From the IMG/VR virus record IMGVR_UViG_3300027857_000014, positions 1 through 64,000 of that record: a DNA stretch of 64,000 nt, one strand, 5' to 3'. Positions 5,510 through 49,838 of the stretch are shown here, in pieces (within the stretch, counting starts at the first letter, position 1; every line of letters begins with the position of its first letter). Position numbers and translations under genes: made by a program. This DNA is from a virus. Under the pieces are notes generated by a model. It was not told the origin of the DNA, did not search any database, and saw only the letters and a program-made list of their open reading frames with translations.

Positions 5510-5851
5510 TTGACTCAACAGACGACACACAACACATTGAGTAGGGAGGTAGAGGAAAGGATTGCTCCCCTTTCACGAACGGAACTAGAAATCGCTCGTC
5601 GGATCCTGATAACTATGGAACGGAGCCTCTTCTTTACACGCTCGACTTTACAGCCTCAACTACAACTGACAGGGGCAATTTTTGGGCCTGTATTGGAGTC
5701 CTTAGTGGGGTTAGGGCTGATCCGAGTTCAGCTGTCGCTTACTAAGATGGGGGCGAATCAGTACTACCTCCCTCGCTACGAGCGAGCAGTAGAAGAGTGG
5801 CGTAAGGAACGCTTGGGGGTGGTTGATAGTGAGCTCGATATGGCATCGTGA
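5510..5851 (+). CDS. Small winged-helix-like protein, possible regulator
   Basis: Predicted 113 aa. The start is placed at TTG 5510 because AAGAAGGAG lies 7 nt upstream. An in-frame ATG at 5465 falls at the expected transcription start and lacks an RBS. The central region (about residues 25-85) looks like helix-helix-helix-strand, ending in GLGLIRVQ and a short beta hairpin, as in winged-helix DNA-binding proteins; no close family was recognised. First gene after the rightward promoter, so a transcriptional regulator of the replication operon is a reasonable guess. Confidence 0.65.
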   Translation: MTQQTTHNTLSREVEERIAPLSRTELEIARRILITMERSLFFTRSTLQPQLQLTGAIFGPVLESLVGLGLIRVQLSLTKMGANQYYLPRYERAVEEWRKERLGVVDSELDMAS

Positions 5852-5961
5852 GGTTCACAAAGGGGTAGGAGGAAGCAGTCTCTACCCCTGCGCGAACGTG
5901 TAGTAGTTGCAAGAAGTTGCACCCTCCGTGCCAGCAGAGGTGTGCTAGTCTGGTGCTACGC

Positions 5962-41157: not shown

Positions 41158-41973
41158 CTATTCTATAATACCGAGTCGCACCAACGCTCTGTATACTCCG
41201 GAGGGTTCTCCACCTACTTTATCTGCAATCCACTCTAAAGTTCTGCGTTCGGTCACGTACCAGTACCTAAGAGTATCTGCGTGTACCGTACTTCCTCCCC
41301 TAGGCCGATACGTATCTTGCGTATTCCGAGGTACACCTAGTAACTTCATATGTCTACTAACTGTAGATACTGCTATGCCAAACTTACTAGCCAGTTCTCG
41401 AGGGGAGAAACCGTGTACGTGCACCCACTTGTATAAGAGATCGTAAGTAGCAACCTCTCTAAACTCTTGCACGGCTTTTCTCCGCTGATCCAGACTACGT
41501 ATACCTAGTCTGCGCCACTGTCTGTACAGGTAGTCCGCGGTTACCCCGAACTGTCTGCATATTTCCGAAACAGTCATGTCACTTTCAGCTGCTGCGATCC
41601 ACTCGTCGTCACTGACTTGAAGTAGCACTTGCCTTCTTCTCCGAGGTATGTTAAAGAGTTGTAACCAGTTATACATCTCTTGGGGGTCACGAAGTCCTAA
41701 CTCGGATATGACATCCTCTATACGCCACAAATCTTCCGAGTAGATTTGTCGTAGCCGTACACCGTCTACTCGAGTGAATTCACTCCTAGTACGTTGGCGT
41801 TGTCGTCCGTACTGCAGACCGTGATACCAGACAAGTAAACAAGCCGCTTCGTGTGACCACTCTAATATAGACGACAGCTCCTTTAGACGTACTCCTCTTC
41901 GAATGAACACTTCGTATGTCCACTCATACGAAGGAGCTCCTGTAGACTCGTAGGTAATTAGGGGTATCTGCAC
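41158..41973 (-). CDS. Multi helix-turn-helix protein (array type 1)
   Basis: Predicted 271 aa; GTG start with TGGAGGT. It carries an N-terminal segment similar to the 45145-45978 protein, then about four HTH-like units: SDMTVSEICRQFGVTADYL, GFSPRELASKFGIAVSTVS, RTLEWIADKVGGEPSGVYR and an earlier imperfect one. No nuclease motif (HNH, GIY-YIG) was seen. Such arrays occur in intron-encoded endonucleases and in regulators; its free-standing location and own promoter favour a DNA-binding regulator or a decayed homing enzyme. Confidence 0.65.
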   Translation of the reverse strand: MQIPLITYESTGAPSYEWTYEVFIRRGVRLKELSSILEWSHEAACLLVWYHGLQYGRQRQRTRSEFTRVDGVRLRQIYSEDLWRIEDVISELGLRDPQEMYNWLQLFNIPRRRRQVLLQVSDDEWIAAAESDMTVSEICRQFGVTADYLYRQWRRLGIRSLDQRRKAVQEFREVATYDLLYKWVHVHGFSPRELASKFGIAVSTVSRHMKLLGVPRNTQDTYRPRGGSTVHADTLRYWYVTERRTLEWIADKVGGEPSGVYRALVRLGIIE

Positions 41974-43176: not shown

Positions 43177-43929
43177 CTACCCATAGATCCAACTCTGTAC
43201 ACCACCATGGTGTGAACATGCACCAGACCCAGTAGCAGTGGACCTAGTACCATCCCTACATATAGCACCTATCCTTACCCCTGCTGGTGTAGGTGTGGGT
43301 ATCACCACTACTGTAGGTACAGGTGTAGGTACAGGTGTAGGTACAGGTGTAGGTACAGGTGTAGGTACAGGTGTAGCAGTGGGTACTATAGGCATGGGTG
43401 TAGCTGTAGGAGTGATGCCAGGTGTAGCTGTAGGGACTACTACAGACGTGGGTGTAGACGTGACTGGTACTGGTGTTGGCTTCGGAGTAGTGGGTGTAGC
43501 TGTAGGTAGTACTACTGGGATAGGCTGTGGTGTAGGAGTTGGGTACACTACAGAGCGTTGCGTGGGAGCTGCGGTAGGAACGATCGGCTGTGCAGCGACT
43601 GGTACAGGTGTGGATGTTACGATAGCGACCACAGGTATCGGAGTTGCTGTGGGGGTTGTACCGGGGACTGTGTTTGGTTTGTCCCTAGCAGTTTTGCCTT
43701 GTTCGTTAGGTAGAGCTGTATGTACTACTGCAACCGTAGGGGTAGAGCTAGAAGTTGCGGCTGAAGTAGTCGGTGTAAGCTTCGCTATCATGAAGCCGAT
43801 GCTAATAGCAATGATACATATGGATACTGCAGCTCCAATAGCGTCTCGTAGCGTACGCTGCCTATTACGCTTTCGCACTGCTTTACTAGGCTTGGTTGGT
43901 TGTTGGTTGAAATCGTCAATCGTGTTCAT
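43177..43929 (-). CDS. Pro/Thr-rich membrane protein with C-terminal DUF3761-like domain
   Basis: Start placed at ATG 43929 (MNTIDDF); a longer frame from 43968 would start inside the terminator of the upstream RNA gene. A basic N-terminus and one membrane segment (about residues 28-48) lead to ~150 aa of Pro/Thr/Val linker with PVPTPVPTP repeats. The last ~30 aa, GAICRDGTRS ... CSHHGGVQSWIYG, match the DUF3761 pattern (C, DGT, C, HGGV). Probably a cell-surface or secreted protein expressed by the phage or prophage; function unknown. Confidence 0.7.
   Translation of the reverse strand: MNTIDDFNQQPTKPSKAVRKRNRQRTLRDAIGAAVSICIIAISIGFMIAKLTPTTSAATSSSTPTVAVVHTALPNEQGKTARDKPNTVPGTTPTATPIPVVAIVTSTPVPVAAQPIVPTAAPTQRSVVYPTPTPQPIPVVLPTATPTTPKPTPVPVTSTPTSVVVPTATPGITPTATPMPIVPTATPVPTPVPTPVPTPVPTPVPTVVVIPTPTPAGVRIGAICRDGTRSTATGSGACSHHGGVQSWIYG
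43313..43375. repeat. 12-bp tandem repeat encoding PVPT units
   Basis: GTAGGTACAGGT is repeated head to tail about five times in the linker of the DUF3761 gene. Such repeats expand and shrink by slippage, changing linker length. Confidence 0.85.
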
Positions 43930-43947
43930 AGTTCGTTGCCCATACAT

Positions 43948-44270
43948 AAAAAGTGGGACTAGGAACAATACCCTAAGTTCCTAGTCCCGTTCTGATCGTC
44001 CATTTGCGCACACCAACGGCGTTTAAGCTGGGAGTTCAGTCGTTACACTCGCGCGTTCTACTCTTAAACTATCCGCCGATGAATTGGACGGCGGAGCAGG
44101 AGCTGCACCTGCATACGTGAGTTTAGTCTCCTAGCATTCGATTTGGCGTTCGACGAAAATGCTTAAGTTAGGGGTAATAACCTAAGCCTTACCAGTCGAG
44201 GTACTGCCTCTACCAAGTTGGGCTATCGCGTCACGAAACGCGAGTGGGACTTGAACCCACACTTGATACC
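43948..44270 (-). ncRNA. ~320-nt RNA with circularly permuted tRNA-like domain, own promoter and terminator
   Basis: Read on the minus strand: TATAAT at 44281-44276, predicted start ~44269, then GGTAT, T-arm GTGGG-TTCAAGT-CCCAC (44260-44244), acceptor 3' strand TCGCGTT, linker TCGT, acceptor 5' strand GACGCGA (7 pairs, one G-U), TA, D-arm GCC...TTGG...GGC, then GTACC which can pair with GGTAT. So the 3' half of a tRNA lies before the 5' half. Next come a 10-bp stem (GCTTAGGTTA/TAACTTAAGC), an ORF of 29 codons (44112-44023, ends LPA, TAA), a likely pseudoknot and a perfect terminator hairpin (43992-43948) ending in T5. This order equals that of permuted tmRNA genes, but the alanine G3-U70 pair is missing (C3-G70). 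Confidence 0.7.
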
Positions 44271-44275
44271 TCTTC

Positions 44276-44281
44276 ATTATA
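44276..44281 (-). promoter_or_regulatory. -10 box of the permuted RNA gene
   Basis: TATAAT on the minus strand. The -35 region is weak (TTCTAC-like), so strength is uncertain. Its position puts the transcript start at the GGTAT strand, excluding the upstream TGAAGA that could otherwise form an anticodon loop. Confidence 0.5.
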
Positions 44282-44329
44282 CATGAGTATAAGTTTGAGT
44301 GTAGAACCCCAAATTATATATACCGGATA

Positions 44330-45058
44330 CTATCCGAATACATATCGCAAAACAGCGTCGCCGACTTTGTGTTCCTCGATCTCGAGGTTGTTAGCCTCTT
44401 CTCGAGCAACCTTTACGGCTTCTTGCAACTTCACTACCCTAGCAGACAGTTCCCTTACTCTAGAAGCCGGCACCATACCAGAGAACCTTACTGTACGCCA
44501 AGTACCTACAGAGACGTCCTCGTAGTACACTTCCACCTGTGCTGGGTGCTTCTCTGTAGCCTCGGCCTTCACATGGTTGCGTGGAACCTTCTTAGTCCGT
44601 ACAGTCTGTGCTGGCTCCGTCGCCCAACAGTCAACTGTCGCATCCCAGAGCCAAGTCTCCGCTGGATCTAGCACAGGTAGCTTGCCTATAAGCGTGTGCA
44701 GATCGATGAGTTGTTTCTCGAGAAACAACAGGTACGTTGCAGGTACTCCAGTAAGTAGTACCTTACCGTCTACGACGACATCAGCTCTTGCCCTACAGTT
44801 AGCCCAATCCTTTGACGCTACAACGTCAAACAACTTCACGAGCGTCCCTGACGTAGACCGAATGATGTCATCTACGTTCATCTGCACCTTAGTGTGCTCT
44901 GGAGGAAGAGTCTCCCCCTCTTCATCTTTAGGTCGGTACGTACGGCTGATTCCAGTAAACAGAGGGGGTTTCTGTAAGATATGGTATGCGGCTGTAACCT
45001 CCTGCAGAGCGCTCGACTTTACGCCTTTCTCTACGGCGATTACCTGATTCAATCTCAT
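44330..45058 (-). CDS. DUF7873-like protein
   Basis: Predicted 242 aa; start at ATG 45058 (MRLNQVIAVEK) with AGGTGG 5 nt upstream. Strong pattern match to a conserved protein of actinobacteria and Chloroflexota: GISRTYRPKDEEGETLPPE, CRARADVVVDG, TYLLFLEKQLIDLHTLI, LDPAETW and RTKKVPRNHVKAEATEKHPA. Function not known. Highly conserved motifs suggest a host-derived gene or a widespread phage gene. Transcribed from the promoter at 45109-45137. Confidence 0.85.
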   Translation of the reverse strand: MRLNQVIAVEKGVKSSALQEVTAAYHILQKPPLFTGISRTYRPKDEEGETLPPEHTKVQMNVDDIIRSTSGTLVKLFDVVASKDWANCRARADVVVDGKVLLTGVPATYLLFLEKQLIDLHTLIGKLPVLDPAETWLWDATVDCWATEPAQTVRTKKVPRNHVKAEATEKHPAQVEVYYEDVSVGTWRTVRFSGMVPASRVRELSARVVKLQEAVKVAREEANNLEIEEHKVGDAVLRYVFG

Positions 45059-45080
45059 GCTGACCACCTACGATATTTTT

Positions 45081-45144: not shown

Positions 45145-45978
45145 TTACCCACAGTCCTCATCGACTATATCCTCATCTTTGGGGATTGATAGTCCCCAAC
45201 GCCTAACTGTCTTACTTATGGTAGAAATACTCTTACCATAAGCGGATGCAATGTCAGTAAGTGAACGTTTGCTGTCTAGCATTGCCTGTAGTTCGCTCGG
45301 AGTGGTTACTTTGCGTAACCATCCGGTTTTCACACCTCTATAACACTTTGCGTAGGGTATGCCGAACTCTTGTAGCATCTTCTCCACAGTTATTATCGAC
45401 CCTCCGACTTCATCGCGGATACTGCTAACGGTTGCACCCGGTCGAGAGGCTGCGTTCCTCAACTCGGCCTCTGCCGTAGGACGTTTGCGTAACCAACGTC
45501 TACTAGGAGGAGCATACCCGACGGTAGCTAGAGCGGCCCTTATCGTAGAGGGAGACGTGTGGTAACTAGCACTAATAGCAGTCATAGTCTCTCCATCGTC
45601 TATGAGGTTGACGATGTCTTCTATGTCAGTATCAGTCAGTAAGTGGCGGTATCTGTAGGGGATACCGTACGCATAACACCAAGCGGACAGTTCCACGTGA
45701 GAATGTAGGTCTAGTAATGCTAGAGCATCTCCTAAGGGGATACTTAGGTCAGTGTACACATATTCGACGTCTTCTTTACTCGGTTGACGTGCCTTAACTC
45801 GACGAGGTATACGCATCGGTAGGTTGTACGCTCGTATCAAAGCGTACATATATGGTGAGGATAACTCAAGTATCTCATATAAGACAGCTATACGAACCCT
45901 CTTCACGACATAGGCATCGTATAGCCACTCGTACGTCGGTCTTCCGCACTCGTCGTACTCTACGGGGTCAAGAAACAT
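45145..45978 (-). CDS. Multi helix-turn-helix protein (array type 2), paralogue of 41158-41973
   Basis: Predicted 277 aa; start set at ATG 45978 with GCGAG upstream (a TTG at 46002 is also in frame). The N-terminus (PTYEWLYDAYVVKRVRIAVL) aligns with PSYEWTYEVFIRRGVRLKEL of the other array protein. Later HTH-like units include GETMTAISASYHTSPSTIR and RSLTDIASAYGKSISTISK. No nuclease motif seen. The pair probably arose by duplication. DNA binding is likely, the target unknown. Confidence 0.65.
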   Translation of the reverse strand: MFLDPVEYDECGRPTYEWLYDAYVVKRVRIAVLYEILELSSPYMYALIRAYNLPMRIPRRVKARQPSKEDVEYVYTDLSIPLGDALALLDLHSHVELSAWCYAYGIPYRYRHLLTDTDIEDIVNLIDDGETMTAISASYHTSPSTIRAALATVGYAPPSRRWLRKRPTAEAELRNAASRPGATVSSIRDEVGGSIITVEKMLQEFGIPYAKCYRGVKTGWLRKVTTPSELQAMLDSKRSLTDIASAYGKSISTISKTVRRWGLSIPKDEDIVDEDCG

Positions 45979-46019
45979 AGTACACTCGCTTTCGTATCGC
46001 AATATACTTTATATAATAT

Positions 46020-47031: not shown

Positions 47032-49838
47032 CTAGCCAATCTTCGGACCTTGCCACAGAAGATAGGCCCGGCTAATTCTAAGCCCCACCGGTATGTTACC
47101 CCGTAGGTAACTCATTACCTACGTGAGGTAGTCATTTCTGCTACCTTCTCGCTATTCCTAGCGAGTCCGGACTGTCGCTTCATCCGAGAGTTCGAACTCT
47201 CGGAGCTTCTCACTCAGTCTCTACGGCTGCACAGTAGTTTGCTACTTGCTTGCCTCGGGATTGTCCACTTATCTCAGTTGGGAGTTTCCCCGATGTCAGA
47301 GAAGTTTAGTCGACCAGCTTACGCTGGAAGGCGACGTGTATGTCCATCGCAAAGACGATGTAGCGTTCGCTGAGGATTCCGTCTACTCCCGACGGAATTT
47401 GGAGGACCGTAAAGTTTGGAGAGAATAGCCAGCGTAAAGTTGCGGTACTCTCGTCCAAGATGTACATGTCCTCGACTAGAGCGTTGTCGCTCGTACGGTT
47501 GTACGTCCCTATCATGTTGCCAGGCACAGGAATGATGGCTAATTGACCGTTCGCCCACTGTACGCTGTTAACCTTGACTCCGGGTATAATTTCGTTGAAG
47601 TCGTTGTTATAACGTTGGTTGGTCTGCTGCTCAGTATCGAGAGCTTGTTTGGAGTTCATCGACATGTAGACAGCACTCGGCATACCACCGGCATTAGCTA
47701 GCTTCGCTGCAACGAACTGGAGACTCTCGAGTATGTTCAGCGAGCTAATATCTGCCTGTGTCGCAGAGTTTGCAGAGAACGAACCGACACTTCCTAGCAC
47801 ACCTCGGAAGCCATCGAAGGCGTTCGCATTGTACAGACCCGCTTCTTGAGTCGCAGTCCCGGAAGAATTAGTCGCATTCCCCTGCATTATGGTGTACTGC
47901 AGGTCCGTAGCCAGTTTGACCATTCCGTTAGCTAATTCGGTCTTCTGAGGGTCATCACGTGTGTTACTCGACCTTTCGGTCGGAGTAGGTCATTTCTGCC
48001 TACTTCTTTACATTTCTGTAAAGGTCAGACTATAGCATCATCTAATACTCTTGCACTACACTCAGAAAGTACTCGACCCACTCATCTTCCACTCCGCGAA
48101 TGGCTCGATGGCAATCTTCGCAGAGAGTAATACCGTTCTCAGAGTCGTTTGTACCTCCTCGGTACAGTGGTAGGATATGGTGTACTTGAAGCTTCCATTT
48201 CTCGGAACAGTCACAGTTAGGCATCTGACACACCCAACTGTCTCGAGATAGTATAACTAGTTTCGTAGTATCGTCAAAACCGTACGTCGTATAAGTTGAG
48301 TCCTCTAGAGTACGCTTTACTTGTGGAGTGTATCTGCCGTTAGAGTGGACCTCAAAACCGAATGCTCTAACCCAACGCTCCACTGCCTGATCTCCTACTC
48401 CTAGTAGTTGTCCTATAGAAGTAAAGCCCATACCTTCGACTATATACATATACCACAACTCATCTCGAGTTACGGGACACTCTATCGGACGATTAACAAG
48501 CGCTCGTCCGGGATCTAGTCCGTACTCTTTTATCAGACCCGAAATCGTTGTTTGGTTGCACCCAAGCGCAGACGCTATCTTTACAGCGGTAAGCCCTTCA
48601 ACTACGTGCCACTGGTACAGTTGCTCTCGAGTTGCTACCGACCTCACAGCGTTATTCGGCGTTACAGTACGTTTGGGGATACTATACTTATTAAGCCAGT
48701 AGCGTATAGATTCCGATGCTGTATAGCCAAACTTTCTTGCTATTTGTATCGGTGTCAAACCTTCAACGACGTACATCTGATATAACTGTTCCTTTGACGG
48801 TCTCTCATTACTCACAGTTCTTATCCCCTTTATATTAACTACTATTTTAATTATAGTATATAAAGAGGTATAAAAACAAGTGAACACCATATGCATTAGA
48901 GCTCTCTCGCTTAGTCGTTACGGGCGTCGACTACATAGCCGACTTCCCTCGGTATTACCTTTCTTCTAAAGACTAGAGAAGTGAAGGCCTCCACCGATAT
49001 CAGAGAGAGTTATTCGACAGCAATCACTTGCTGAAGCCGCTATGCTGCTAACGGAGCTCCACCCTGGGCTACAGCGGCCATCTCCTTGAAACTCACGCCT
49101 CTACCAACGCCAAAGACGGCGATCGGGAACGTAGCCCTTACGTAGGTCGAGGCGGTATAGCTGACGGTACCAAGCTCAGTAATGATGGTCGAACCGAGAG
49201 AGTTACTGTCGGGAGTTGTAATTTGATTCAGTCTGTTACCTACGCCGAAGCGTCGGACAAGTCATTTCTGCTTGTCTCCCTAGTTTCATTCGAACTAGTT
49301 ATAGCTAGGGTTCAGAACATGTCATCCCTTTCGGGGAGCGCGTATGTTCGTTACGGACTCTCTGACAAAGGTCAGGTTGCCTCGGCGTTACGCACTGCTG
49401 CGCTTTCACCGATACAGCGCTCTTTGCTTACGAAGCAGTATCCTACTTCGCAGGGCCAACAGCTTACGCTCCAGCCGCATGGACGAGACCATTAGCTGGT
49501 CCCTTAGCGAGCCGCTCAAATGCAGGGAACACCTTCACAAACAGCGCATAGAGGGTAGGTTCCAGGTCTTGCCGGATTAATACGTTGCCTGTAGTTCCTG
49601 ACGTTGAGTCTAGGATACCTTTGACAGCGTCTGGTGCGAAGGGGGCGTTACGCATTTCGCGTAGCAGTTCCTTTGTCATGCCACTGTCGTCTTTAGGAGG
49701 TGCCTGACGCATCATGTACTGCAGTTGACGATCCAGCTGGACTGGATTCATCTTTAGCAGCTCTCCTACCATCTTGTCACGTTTGATCTGGTAAGTCGCA
49801 TCGTTCGGATGCTGAAATTCTGTAAATGTATCTGCCAC
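47032..49838 (-). CDS. Major capsid protein, split into four exons by three group I introns
   Basis: Predicted exons (minus strand): 49838-49483, 49240-49050, 47966-47346, 47098-47032. Starts at GTG 49838 with AAAGGATG. Joined product is about 410 aa. Exon 1 gives KMNPVQLDRQLQYMM and LDSTSGTTGNVLIRQDLEP; exon 2 ELGTVSYTASTYVRATF and VSFKEMAAVAQGG; exon 3 TELANGMVKLATDLQY; exon 4 closes as VFAI-NIPVGLRISRAYLL. This is the pattern of HK97-fold capsid proteins of the SU10/DUF5309-like type. Total coding length is a multiple of three only if one CT pair is removed from a (CT)n run in exon 2. Splice points are +/-1-3 nt. Confidence 0.8.
47099..47345 (-). mobile_element. Group I intron C, ORF-less
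   Basis: About 247 nt. Exon ...GCGAT pairs with GTCGC downstream (5 pairs, closing U-G at the splice site), the classic P1. P7-like GAGACTGAG and CAGTCCGGAC, then GTAGCAGAAATGACTAC and a long hairpin before G|TAAC. Splicing here changes the end of the capsid from HVAFQRKLVD to NIPVGLRISRAYLL, which looks more capsid-like. Confidence 0.8.
48042..48815 (-). CDS. Intron-encoded HNH homing endonuclease with HTH repeats
   Basis: Predicted 257 aa. Start placed at GTG 48815 with AAGGGG, downstream of the promoter at 48850-48879; a longer frame from 48896 would span that promoter. Three similar HTH-like units (MYVVEGLTPIQIARKFG, WHVVEGLTAVKIASALG, MYIVEGMGFTSIGQLLG) precede a C-terminal HNH domain: C-x4-C, LQVHHILPLYRGGTNDSENG and CEDCHRAI. 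Such enzymes cut intronless alleles and spread the intron. Repeated units resemble the free-standing array proteins at 41158 and 45145. Confidence 0.88.
   Translation of the reverse strand: MSNERPSKEQLYQMYVVEGLTPIQIARKFGYTASESIRYWLNKYSIPKRTVTPNNAVRSVATREQLYQWHVVEGLTAVKIASALGCNQTTISGLIKEYGLDPGRALVNRPIECPVTRDELWYMYIVEGMGFTSIGQLLGVGDQAVERWVRAFGFEVHSNGRYTPQVKRTLEDSTYTTYGFDDTTKLVILSRDSWVCQMPNCDCSEKWKLQVHHILPLYRGGTNDSENGITLCEDCHRAIRGVEDEWVEYFLSVVQEY
48850..48879 (-). promoter_or_regulatory. Predicted promoter for the intron endonuclease
   Basis: Minus strand: TTGTTT (48879-48874), 18-bp spacer, TATAAT (48855-48850). The endonuclease thus appears to be made from its own phage-type promoter inside the capsid transcript. 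Confidence 0.75.
49241..49482 (-). mobile_element. Group I intron D, ORF-less
   Basis: About 242 nt. A variant member of the set: GTAACGAACAT and ATGTTCTGAACC replace the usual P7 sequence with a compensatory pair (GAACAT/ATGTTC), then CAAGCAGAAATGACTTG and a UUCG-capped hairpin before G|TAAC. Exon 1 is placed to end ...CTCGT (49483), pairing with GCGG. The join reads NGLV-NRLNQITTPDSN. Compensatory change in P7 supports a functional intron. Confidence 0.7.

What the first reader, a model, noticed from the sequence alone, without database searches (positions are those of the whole stretch)
43948..44281. RNA gene with a circularly permuted tRNA-like domain, possible permuted tmRNA
Sequence shows, on the minus strand, a canonical T-arm and acceptor 3' strand placed before the acceptor 5' strand and a D-arm, joined by only 4 nt, with 7 acceptor pairs and a GGUAU/GUACC stem closing the missing anticodon side. 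The transcript (own -10 box, perfect terminator) is about 320 nt, has a 10-bp stem, a 29-codon frame ending in LPA-stop, and interleaved stems (GUUUAAG/CUUAAAC with GCGC...UAACG) typical of a pseudoknot. Permuted tmRNA genes are known in alphaproteobacteria and cyanobacteria with this order of parts. Against it: no G3-U70 alanine pair, a real D-stem, and a very short linker. It could instead be a permuted tRNA or a new tRNA-mimic RNA.
Basis: partly seen in the sequence, partly recalled or inferred. Interest (0 to 1): 0.9.

Follow-up and report, generated by a model that had tools for sequence, protein, structure and literature searches.

The report
Double tRNA-mimic RNA with partner protein
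The phage carries a member of an apparently undescribed family of ~350-base RNAs that imitate two transfer RNAs in one molecule and occur only together with one conserved protein of unknown function (DUF7873), in phages and in about half of the Streptomyces genomes sampled.

Summary
The permuted tRNA-like domain is real, but the RNA is not a tmRNA. Window 43955-44310 (minus strand) is one member of a conserved ~350-nt RNA family that has no Rfam entry; only fragments resemble YrlA (RF02553). It contains two permuted tRNA-like modules (T-arm, acceptor 3' strand, short cap, acceptor 5' strand, D-arm).

In an unbiased scan of 48 non-redundant homologues, the 27 strongest covarying column pairs are all Watson-Crick pairs of the modules, the core helices and a loop-loop contact. 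They include the tRNA tertiary pair 15-48. The contact is N-C-Y at the module-2 acceptor tip against GGN' in the 3' hairpin loop, with N:N' covarying as in T-box riboswitches.

The neighbouring gene (44330-45067) is DUF7873. In 150 Streptomyces genomes 70 have DUF7873 and exactly the same 70 have the RNA. In 201 Chloroflexota the two sets are again identical (14 each), although in several the genes are unlinked. Ro60 does not track the RNA, and YrlA-like hits beside Ro60 in the same genomes are separate loci.

Identity as a DUF7873-partnered RNA family is very likely (~0.95). The function, probably a ribonucleoprotein that presents tRNA-like surfaces to tRNA-binding factors, is inferred (~0.35).

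The parts
44330..45067 (-). DUF7873 (PF25283) protein gene, 245 aa; obligate partner of the RNA
   Evidence: Pfam E=1e-110; identical genome sets with the RNA in 150 Streptomyces and 201 Chloroflexota genomes; AlphaFold2 pLDDT 92, no PDB match with E<=1e-3
44313..44318 (-). TATAAT, candidate -10 element just upstream of the conserved RNA 5' end
   Evidence: sequence; inference only
43955..44310 (-). the RNA gene, ~356 nt, member of a conserved family with no Rfam entry
   Evidence: nhmmer E=6e-68 (the window was one of the eleven seeds), alignment of 71 homologues, covariation
44171..44310 (-). P1: 5'-terminal GGGGU (44310-44306) pairs with ACCCC (44175-44171) in the loop of the central hairpin (44186-44163), a pseudoknot
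   Evidence: columns 4-9/136-141 with 24 covarying cells; coordinates
44198..44272 (-). stem S1 below module 1: GAGGUAU (44272-44266) / GUACCUC (44204-44198)
   Evidence: cognate versus non-cognate duplex energy p=2e-8 over 48 homologues
44206..44260 (-). tRNA-like module 1: T-arm 44260-44244, acceptor 3' strand 44243-44237, cap UCGU, acceptor 5' strand 44232-44226, D-arm 44223-44206
   Evidence: RF02553 32.3 bits; T-stem 98-100% and acceptor 94-100% paired with compensatory changes
43995..44157 (-). core helices P4 (44157-44152/44000-43995), P5 (44148-44143/44016-44011), P3 (44135-44127/44035-44027), S2 (44122-44116/44053-44047)
   Evidence: 38 of 43 pairs of the core and module 2 have changes on both sides, 95.1% of cells paired, 0/500 shuffles; coordinates
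44055..44112 (-). tRNA-like module 2: T-arm 44112-44096, acceptor 3' strand 44095-44089, tip UCCA 44088-44085, acceptor 5' strand 44078-44072, D-arm 44069-44055
   Evidence: RF02553 15.7 bits; helices 98-100% paired and columns matching tRNA tertiary pairs 15-48, 18-55, 9-23 covary
43955..43988 (-). 3' hairpin with U-run; loop GGG (43973-43971) pairs with UCC (44088-44086) at the tip of acceptor 2
   Evidence: columns 226-228/335-337: 97-100% paired, N:N' varies G-C/U-A/A-U/U-G; rule holds in 79 of 88 loci

Best explanation
The feature is a phage copy of a widespread structured RNA that works as the RNA half of a ribonucleoprotein with the protein encoded next to it (DUF7873). Shown by comparative evidence: (a) The RNA folds into a core of long-range helices plus a 5' pseudoknot, from which two tRNA-like modules project. 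Each module keeps the T-arm, D-arm and acceptor stem of a tRNA, closes the acceptor with a short cap, and uses the place of the anticodon arm as the attachment stem. (b) Module 2 keeps covarying tRNA tertiary contacts, so it should form a real tRNA elbow. (c) The NCC/NCU at the tip of acceptor 2 pairs with GGN' in the 3' hairpin loop, so the RNA holds its own 'CCA end' the way a T-box or RNase P RNA holds that of a tRNA. (d) RNA and DUF7873 are present or absent together. Inferred: DUF7873 binds the RNA, and the exposed elbows of the modules are docking sites for tRNA-binding factors (processing or modifying enzymes, nucleases or the ribosome), much as the tRNA-like module of YrlA does in Ro60 particles. 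Phages with tRNA arrays may use it to protect or manage tRNAs during infection. Confidence by part: identity as a DUF7873-partnered RNA family ~0.95; direct RNA-protein complex ~0.8; elbow-docking mechanism ~0.35.
For: Second YrlA-like match in the same RNA. RNA downstream of DUF7873 in 74 of 80 bacterial loci and in Gordonia, Arthrobacter, Rhodococcus, Pseudanabaena, Vibrio, Rhizobium and Klebsiella phages. Top 27 covarying pairs all Watson-Crick; Levitt 15-48 pair U-A 40 / C-G 8. Core and module 2: 38/43 pairs doubly substituted, 95.1% paired, 0/500 shuffles, slid controls 38-47%. Loop contact in 79/88 loci, with related Vibrio phages GCCA/UGGC and ACCA/UGGU. Set identity 70/70 of 150 and 14/14 of 201 genomes; unlinked in Herpetosiphon and others. 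An RNA-only DNA pattern recovered a viral contig with DUF7873 beside the RNA (L071). Streptomyces copies without module 1 cap S1 with a plain hairpin, showing that modules are separable domains. YrlA precedent: PMC8394870, PMC7790460.
Against: No transcript, binding or phenotype data. DUF7873 has no fold or sequence match with known RNA-binding function, so binding is inferred from co-occurrence. No conserved third gene hints at a pathway. Module 1 is missing in some Streptomyces and Vibrio copies appear to have one module, so two modules are not strictly required. In the window copy module 2 has a non-canonical T-loop (UGCAGCU) and D-loop (no GG), so its elbow may be weak. The identical-set probabilities ignore shared ancestry.
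Confidence: 0.6

Rival explanations
1. It is a permuted two-piece tmRNA that is cut into coding and acceptor pieces and tags stalled proteins.
For: Order of parts resembles permuted tmRNA genes; some homologues encode ACCA after the acceptor strand.
Against: tmRNA models match only the T-arm here (9.8 bits); weak partial tmRNA hits elsewhere stay far below threshold. Two modules instead of one; no conserved tag frame (17/47 open); a true tmRNA lies near it in Phendrix.
Confidence: 0.01
2. It is the Y RNA (YrlA) partner of a Ro60 (TROVE) protein.
For: RF02553 is the only Rfam family matched repeatedly; the modules have the YrlA layout.
Against: All scores are far below the curated threshold (at most 40.3 against 69). 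No TROVE gene in the phage record or in the 177-kb record that is identical over the shared 2,991 bases. In Chloroflexota 9 of 14 RNA-positive genomes lack TROVE; in Streptomyces only 42 of 70 have TROVE (38 expected by chance), against 70 of 70 for DUF7873. YrlA-like module hits lie ~1.2-1.4 kb from TROVE as separate loci in the same genomes (for example G227, G232, G244, G352).
Confidence: 0.03
3. It is a precursor of permuted tRNAs or of a multi-piece RNA: RNase P and 3' processing cut each acceptor cap, giving two or three pieces with CCA ends.
For: Many homologues have NCCA directly after the acceptor 3' strand and a 3-9 nt linker before the acceptor 5' strand.
Against: No anticodon arm; the NCC of module 2 is paired with the 3' hairpin loop; caps vary from 4 to about 45 nt; the window's module 1 has no CCA. 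Cutting is not excluded by sequence alone.
Confidence: 0.1
4. It is a decoy: the particle titrates a tRNA-targeting nuclease or toxin and so protects tRNAs, used by phages as counter-defence.
For: Frequent in phages with large tRNA arrays; patchy spread among bacteria and, for the window phage, nesting in a Ktedonobacteria clade; competitive inhibition of an anticodon nuclease has been suggested for YrlA (PMC7790460).
Against: No anticodon arms, so anticodon nucleases would need to bind elbows only; a conserved single copy in about half of sampled Streptomyces looks more like a host function than counter-defence.
Confidence: 0.2
5. The match is an artefact of tandem ordinary tRNA genes, whose 3' half followed by 5' half looks like a permuted tRNA.
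For: Partial model hits (positions 48-109) occur in genomes without DUF7873, and RF02553 weakly rings in most control genomes.
Against: ARAGORN finds no tRNA at the site; full-length core hits form a separate class (>=63 bits in Streptomyces, next <=45.5); acceptor halves covary with each other across homologues.
Confidence: 0.01

Closest known systems
YrlA / bacterial Y RNA (RF02553) with Ro60 (Rsr)
   Same: A tRNA-like module with T-arm, capped acceptor and D-arm in permuted order, hung on a stem in place of the anticodon arm; a stand-alone RNA paired with one protein.
   Different: Partner is DUF7873, not TROVE; ~350 nt instead of 90-150; usually two modules; extra core helices, 5' pseudoknot and acceptor-tip/hairpin-loop contact; scores at most 40 bits against a threshold of 69.
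T-box riboswitch (UGGN bulge recognising tRNA NCCA) and RNase P RNA loop L15
   Same: GG plus a base that covaries with the discriminator position pairs with N-C-C of an acceptor end (comparison from general knowledge).
   Different: Here both halves are in the same RNA and the 'tRNA' is an internal mimic; the GGN' sits in a hairpin loop, not an antiterminator bulge. No common descent tested or claimed.
Permuted (two-piece) tmRNA of alphaproteobacteria and cyanobacteria
   Same: Acceptor 3' strand precedes acceptor 5' strand in the gene.
   Different: No conserved tag frame, D-stem present, two modules, no significant match to tmRNA models; coexists with a true tmRNA.
GOLLD, ROOL and HEARO RNAs (large phage or mobile-element RNAs)
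   Same: Large structured RNAs in phages, some near tRNA arrays.
   Different: No Rfam match to any of them at this locus; different architecture.

Membership tests
YrlA (RF02553) | Score above curated gathering threshold (69 bits) | tested here: not met
   32.3 and 15.7 bits in the window; at most 40.3 bits in relatives
YrlA (RF02553) | tRNA-like T-arm / capped acceptor / D-arm module | tested here: met
   both modules, covarying helices
YrlA (RF02553) | Gene linked to or co-occurring with Ro60 (TROVE) | tested here: not met
YrlA (RF02553) | Ro60-binding stem formed by the 5' and 3' ends of the RNA | tested here: not met
   the 5' end pairs with the central hairpin loop and the 3' end is a hairpin; three of six outer-stem pairs are non-standard in the cmscan alignment
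tmRNA (RF00023, RF01849-RF01851) | Match to a tmRNA covariance model | tested here: not met
   T-arm only, 9.8 bits
tmRNA (RF00023, RF01849-RF01851) | Conserved tag reading frame | tested here: not met
   17 of 47 homologues stop-free in the cited frame; other frames not tested
tmRNA (RF00023, RF01849-RF01851) | G3-U70 alanine identity pair | tested here: not met
   window acceptor 1 has C3-G70; most listed homologues lack it too, though Phendrix module 1 has G3-U70
tmRNA (RF00023, RF01849-RF01851) | Charging with alanine and tagging of stalled proteins | not testable with these tools
   needs an experiment
tRNA (permuted) | Anticodon arm | tested here: not met
   replaced by stems S1 and S2 that lead into the rest of the RNA; ARAGORN finds no tRNA
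DUF7873-associated RNA (this family) | Full-length core covariance match and DUF7873 in the same genome | tested here: met
   the window sequence is itself among those the models were built from
Ribonucleoprotein with DUF7873 | Physical binding of protein and RNA | not testable with these tools
   needs co-purification or a structure

The most novel reading that the evidence does not exclude
A previously undescribed class of ribonucleoprotein spread over Actinomycetota, Chloroflexota, several other phyla and many phages: an RNA that carries two internal tRNA mimics, reads the acceptor tip of one of them with a T-box-like GGN' loop, and is found only with DUF7873, a protein with no significant fold match in the PDB.
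Probability: 0.85. Interest if true: 0.92.

Novelty: categorically new. Interest (0 to 1): 0.88.

Why it matters
An RNA family with no entry in the current Rfam, present in 70 of 150 sampled Streptomyces species and traceable into jumbo Klebsiella phages, sits beside a domain of unknown function that Pfam already catalogues. It gives that protein family a partner and a testable activity. It offers a second case of bacterial tRNA mimicry of the YrlA/Ro60 kind with a different protein, and an intramolecular version of the T-box/tRNA-end handshake. Several phages carry it inside tRNA arrays, so it may bear on how phages guard or use tRNAs during infection.

Tried and rejected
DNA similarity search in the phage collection found nothing for the RNA alone, so relatives were reached through the neighbouring protein. 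The YrlA/Ro60 reading was taken seriously after and dropped. Permuted tmRNA was dropped. A tandem-tRNA artefact was tested with ARAGORN and with the score gap. Broad T-arm/D-arm pattern search of viral contigs mostly returned other loci, probably tandem tRNAs, but also L071, a true family member. Conserved gene neighbourhoods were sought and not found beyond single lineages. Fold searches of the DUF7873 model gave no match with E<=1e-3; one crAss-like phage protein (A0A7M1RW91, probability 1.00, E=0.025, TM 0.46/0.61) is a lead only. The full text of Chen et al. 2014 on YrlA was not held. Searches for literature on DUF7873 or a similar RNA returned nothing relevant, but subscription papers and bioRxiv preprints are largely missing from the library.

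Full report
Checking the observation. The minus-strand sequence at 44260-44206 is indeed a T-arm, an acceptor 3' strand, a 4-nt cap, an acceptor 5' strand and a D-arm, with the GAGGUAU/GUACCUC stem outside it. With default thresholds Rfam reports nothing here, only ordinary tRNAs far away, and ARAGORN finds no tRNA or tmRNA at the site. With open thresholds the best family is YrlA (RF02553): 32.3 bits end to end at 44284-44185, and a second, weaker module hit (15.7 bits) at 44113-44055 in the same RNA. tmRNA matches only the T-arm with 9.8 bits.

From one RNA to a family. The RNA itself has no DNA match in 50,697 phage records. The gene just upstream (44330-45067) is DUF7873 (Pfam PF25283, E=1e-110). 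Its relatives in viral contigs and phage records led to an unannotated gap of a few hundred bases downstream of DUF7873 in Gordonia, Arthrobacter, Rhodococcus, Pseudanabaena and other phages. That gap holds the same kind of RNA, and YrlA hits fall there again and again. A scan of bacterial genomes found 538 DUF7873 loci, of which 80 were kept. A profile built from eleven of the RNAs finds the RNA beside DUF7873 in 74 of the 80. The exceptions are four Herpetosiphon loci, L152 and L168. In the four of these genomes that were searched, a core hit lies elsewhere in the genome (weak, 54.8 bits, in the genome of L168). A DNA pattern built only on the T-arm/D-arm order found viral contig L071; the profile shows the RNA there and the adjacent ORF is DUF7873 with E=7.5e-109. 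Rhizobium and Klebsiella phage proteins only about 30% identical to the window's still have RNA modules downstream.

Structure. On 48 non-redundant sequences a G-test with average-product correction, without any assumed structure, ranks Watson-Crick pairs in all of its first 27 places. They fall into T-arm 1, acceptor 1, T-arm 2, acceptor 2, D-arm 2, the stem below module 2 (S2), core helices P3, P4 and P5, the 226/337 contact and the 201/248 tertiary pair. A scan of all possible helices returns the same helices first, plus the 3' hairpin and P1, the pairing of the RNA's 5' end with the loop of a central hairpin. For the core and module 2, 38 of 43 pairs show changes on both sides, 95.1% of cells are paired, no shuffle reaches these values, and sliding the partners drops pairing to 38-47%. 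The stem below module 1 is stronger between cognate halves than between halves of different sequences, p=2e-8.

Two further results matter. First, module 2 keeps tRNA tertiary covariation. The column before T-stem 2 pairs with the second D-loop column as U-A in 40 and C-G in 8 sequences, which corresponds to the Levitt pair 15-48 of tRNA. Columns corresponding to 18-55 and 9-23 also covary. That argues for a real tRNA elbow, not just three hairpins. Second, the three bases after acceptor 2 (N-C-C or N-C-U) pair with GGN' in the loop of the 3' hairpin, and N:N' changes in step (G-C, U-A, A-U, U-G). A separate automatic search of 88 loci finds the rule obeyed in 79, with GCCA/UGGC and ACCA/UGGU in two related Vibrio phages. 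In the window it is UCC (44088-44086) with GGG (43973-43971). T-box riboswitches and RNase P RNA recognise real tRNA ends in this way (general knowledge); here the RNA does it to its own mimic.

Protein partner. DUF7873 is 65-74% identical between the window and bacteria of several phyla. AlphaFold2 gives a confident model (pLDDT 92) with no PDB or viral structure match at E<=1e-3, and no PDB sequence relative. The RNA and the protein occur together without exception in the samples taken. Of 150 Streptomyces genomes 70 have DUF7873 and the same 70 have a full-length core RNA hit of at least 63 bits, while the next-best hits stop at 45.5 bits (set identity checked). Of 201 Chloroflexota genomes 14 have DUF7873, and the full-length RNA hits fall in the same 14 (the weakest, G027, has 41 bits). 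The naive chances of identical sets are 1.5e-44 and 8e-22, which ignore shared ancestry. In Herpetosiphon and other Chloroflexota the two genes are far apart or on other contigs, so linkage alone does not explain co-occurrence. No other gene is conserved beside them across lineages.

Is it a Y RNA? By design of the module, yes in kind; by membership, no. Ro60 (TROVE) is absent from the phage record and from the longer record that is identical over the shared 2,991 bases. TROVE is found in 81 of 150 Streptomyces; by comparing the two lists, 42 of the 70 RNA-positive genomes have it, where chance gives 38. In Chloroflexota 9 of 14 RNA-positive genomes lack it. In several Streptomyces genomes the best partial module hits lie 1.2-1.4 kb from TROVE genes, which is where Y RNAs belong, and these genomes carry the DUF7873 RNA elsewhere when they have it. 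Published YrlA RNAs are 90-150 nt with a terminal stem that binds the Ro60 ring and a tRNA-like domain modified by DusA and TruB (PMC8394870).

How it may work. Shown: a compact RNA with one or two tRNA-like elbows, an internally bound acceptor tip, and an obligate genetic partner. Inferred: DUF7873 binds the RNA; the elbows attract proteins or the ribosome that normally bind tRNA; the particle sequesters, delivers or regulates such a factor. Streptomyces copies without module 1 close the same stem with a plain hairpin, so module 1 behaves as an accessory domain, while module 2 and its contact with the 3' hairpin form the conserved heart. The window phage's DUF7873 sits inside a Ktedonobacteria-dominated clade (97/97 support) and phage L071's in another Ktedonobacterales group, whereas most phage versions branch outside the bacterial ones. 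Phages have therefore probably taken up the pair more than once, and the window phage probably infects a Chloroflexota host (inference).

Limits. There is no expression or binding evidence. Promoter and ends are inferred from conservation. The alignment for the 5' leader is weaker than for the rest. Some phyla are represented only by metagenome-assembled genomes. The literature search covered open-access papers only, so an unheld report of this RNA cannot be excluded.

Noticed in passing
L256 3413-3492 (Klebsiella phage vB_KpM_FBKp24): A feature annotated as tRNA-Sup(TTA) lies in the region downstream of DUF7873 occupied by this RNA and is probably a misannotation; a promoter is annotated just upstream of the RNA.
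   Followed up: partly
L148 3941-4150 (Microcoleus phage My-WqHQDG): A HEARO RNA (129 bits) lies directly downstream of DUF7873; parts of the DUF7873 RNA profile score further on at 5548-5901, suggesting a mobile element inserted between the two genes.
   Followed up: partly
Streptomyces genomes such as G227, G232, G244, G352: YrlA-like module hits 1.2-1.4 kb from TROVE genes: likely Streptomyces Y RNAs, separate from the DUF7873 RNA.
   Followed up: partly
model of DUF7873 (mc8464f89f11a): Foldseek hit to uncharacterised crAss-like phage protein A0A7M1RW91 (probability 1.00, E=0.025, TM 0.46/0.61); it may mark a distant relative with its own RNA.
   Followed up: no
window 41158-41973 and 45145-46002: Two proteins built of repeated helix-turn-helix units, like the DNA-binding parts of HNH endonucleases; an HNH-bearing version is at 48042-48896.
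   Followed up: no
window 43177-43968: Gene downstream of the RNA encodes a probably membrane-anchored protein with long Pro/Thr-rich repeats; its listed TTG start lies inside the RNA's 3' hairpin, so a later ATG is more likely the true start.
   Followed up: no
L158 and L165: Two bacterial copies of the RNA are split in the profile search; in L158 about 150 nt of extra sequence sits in the cap of module 2.
   Followed up: no
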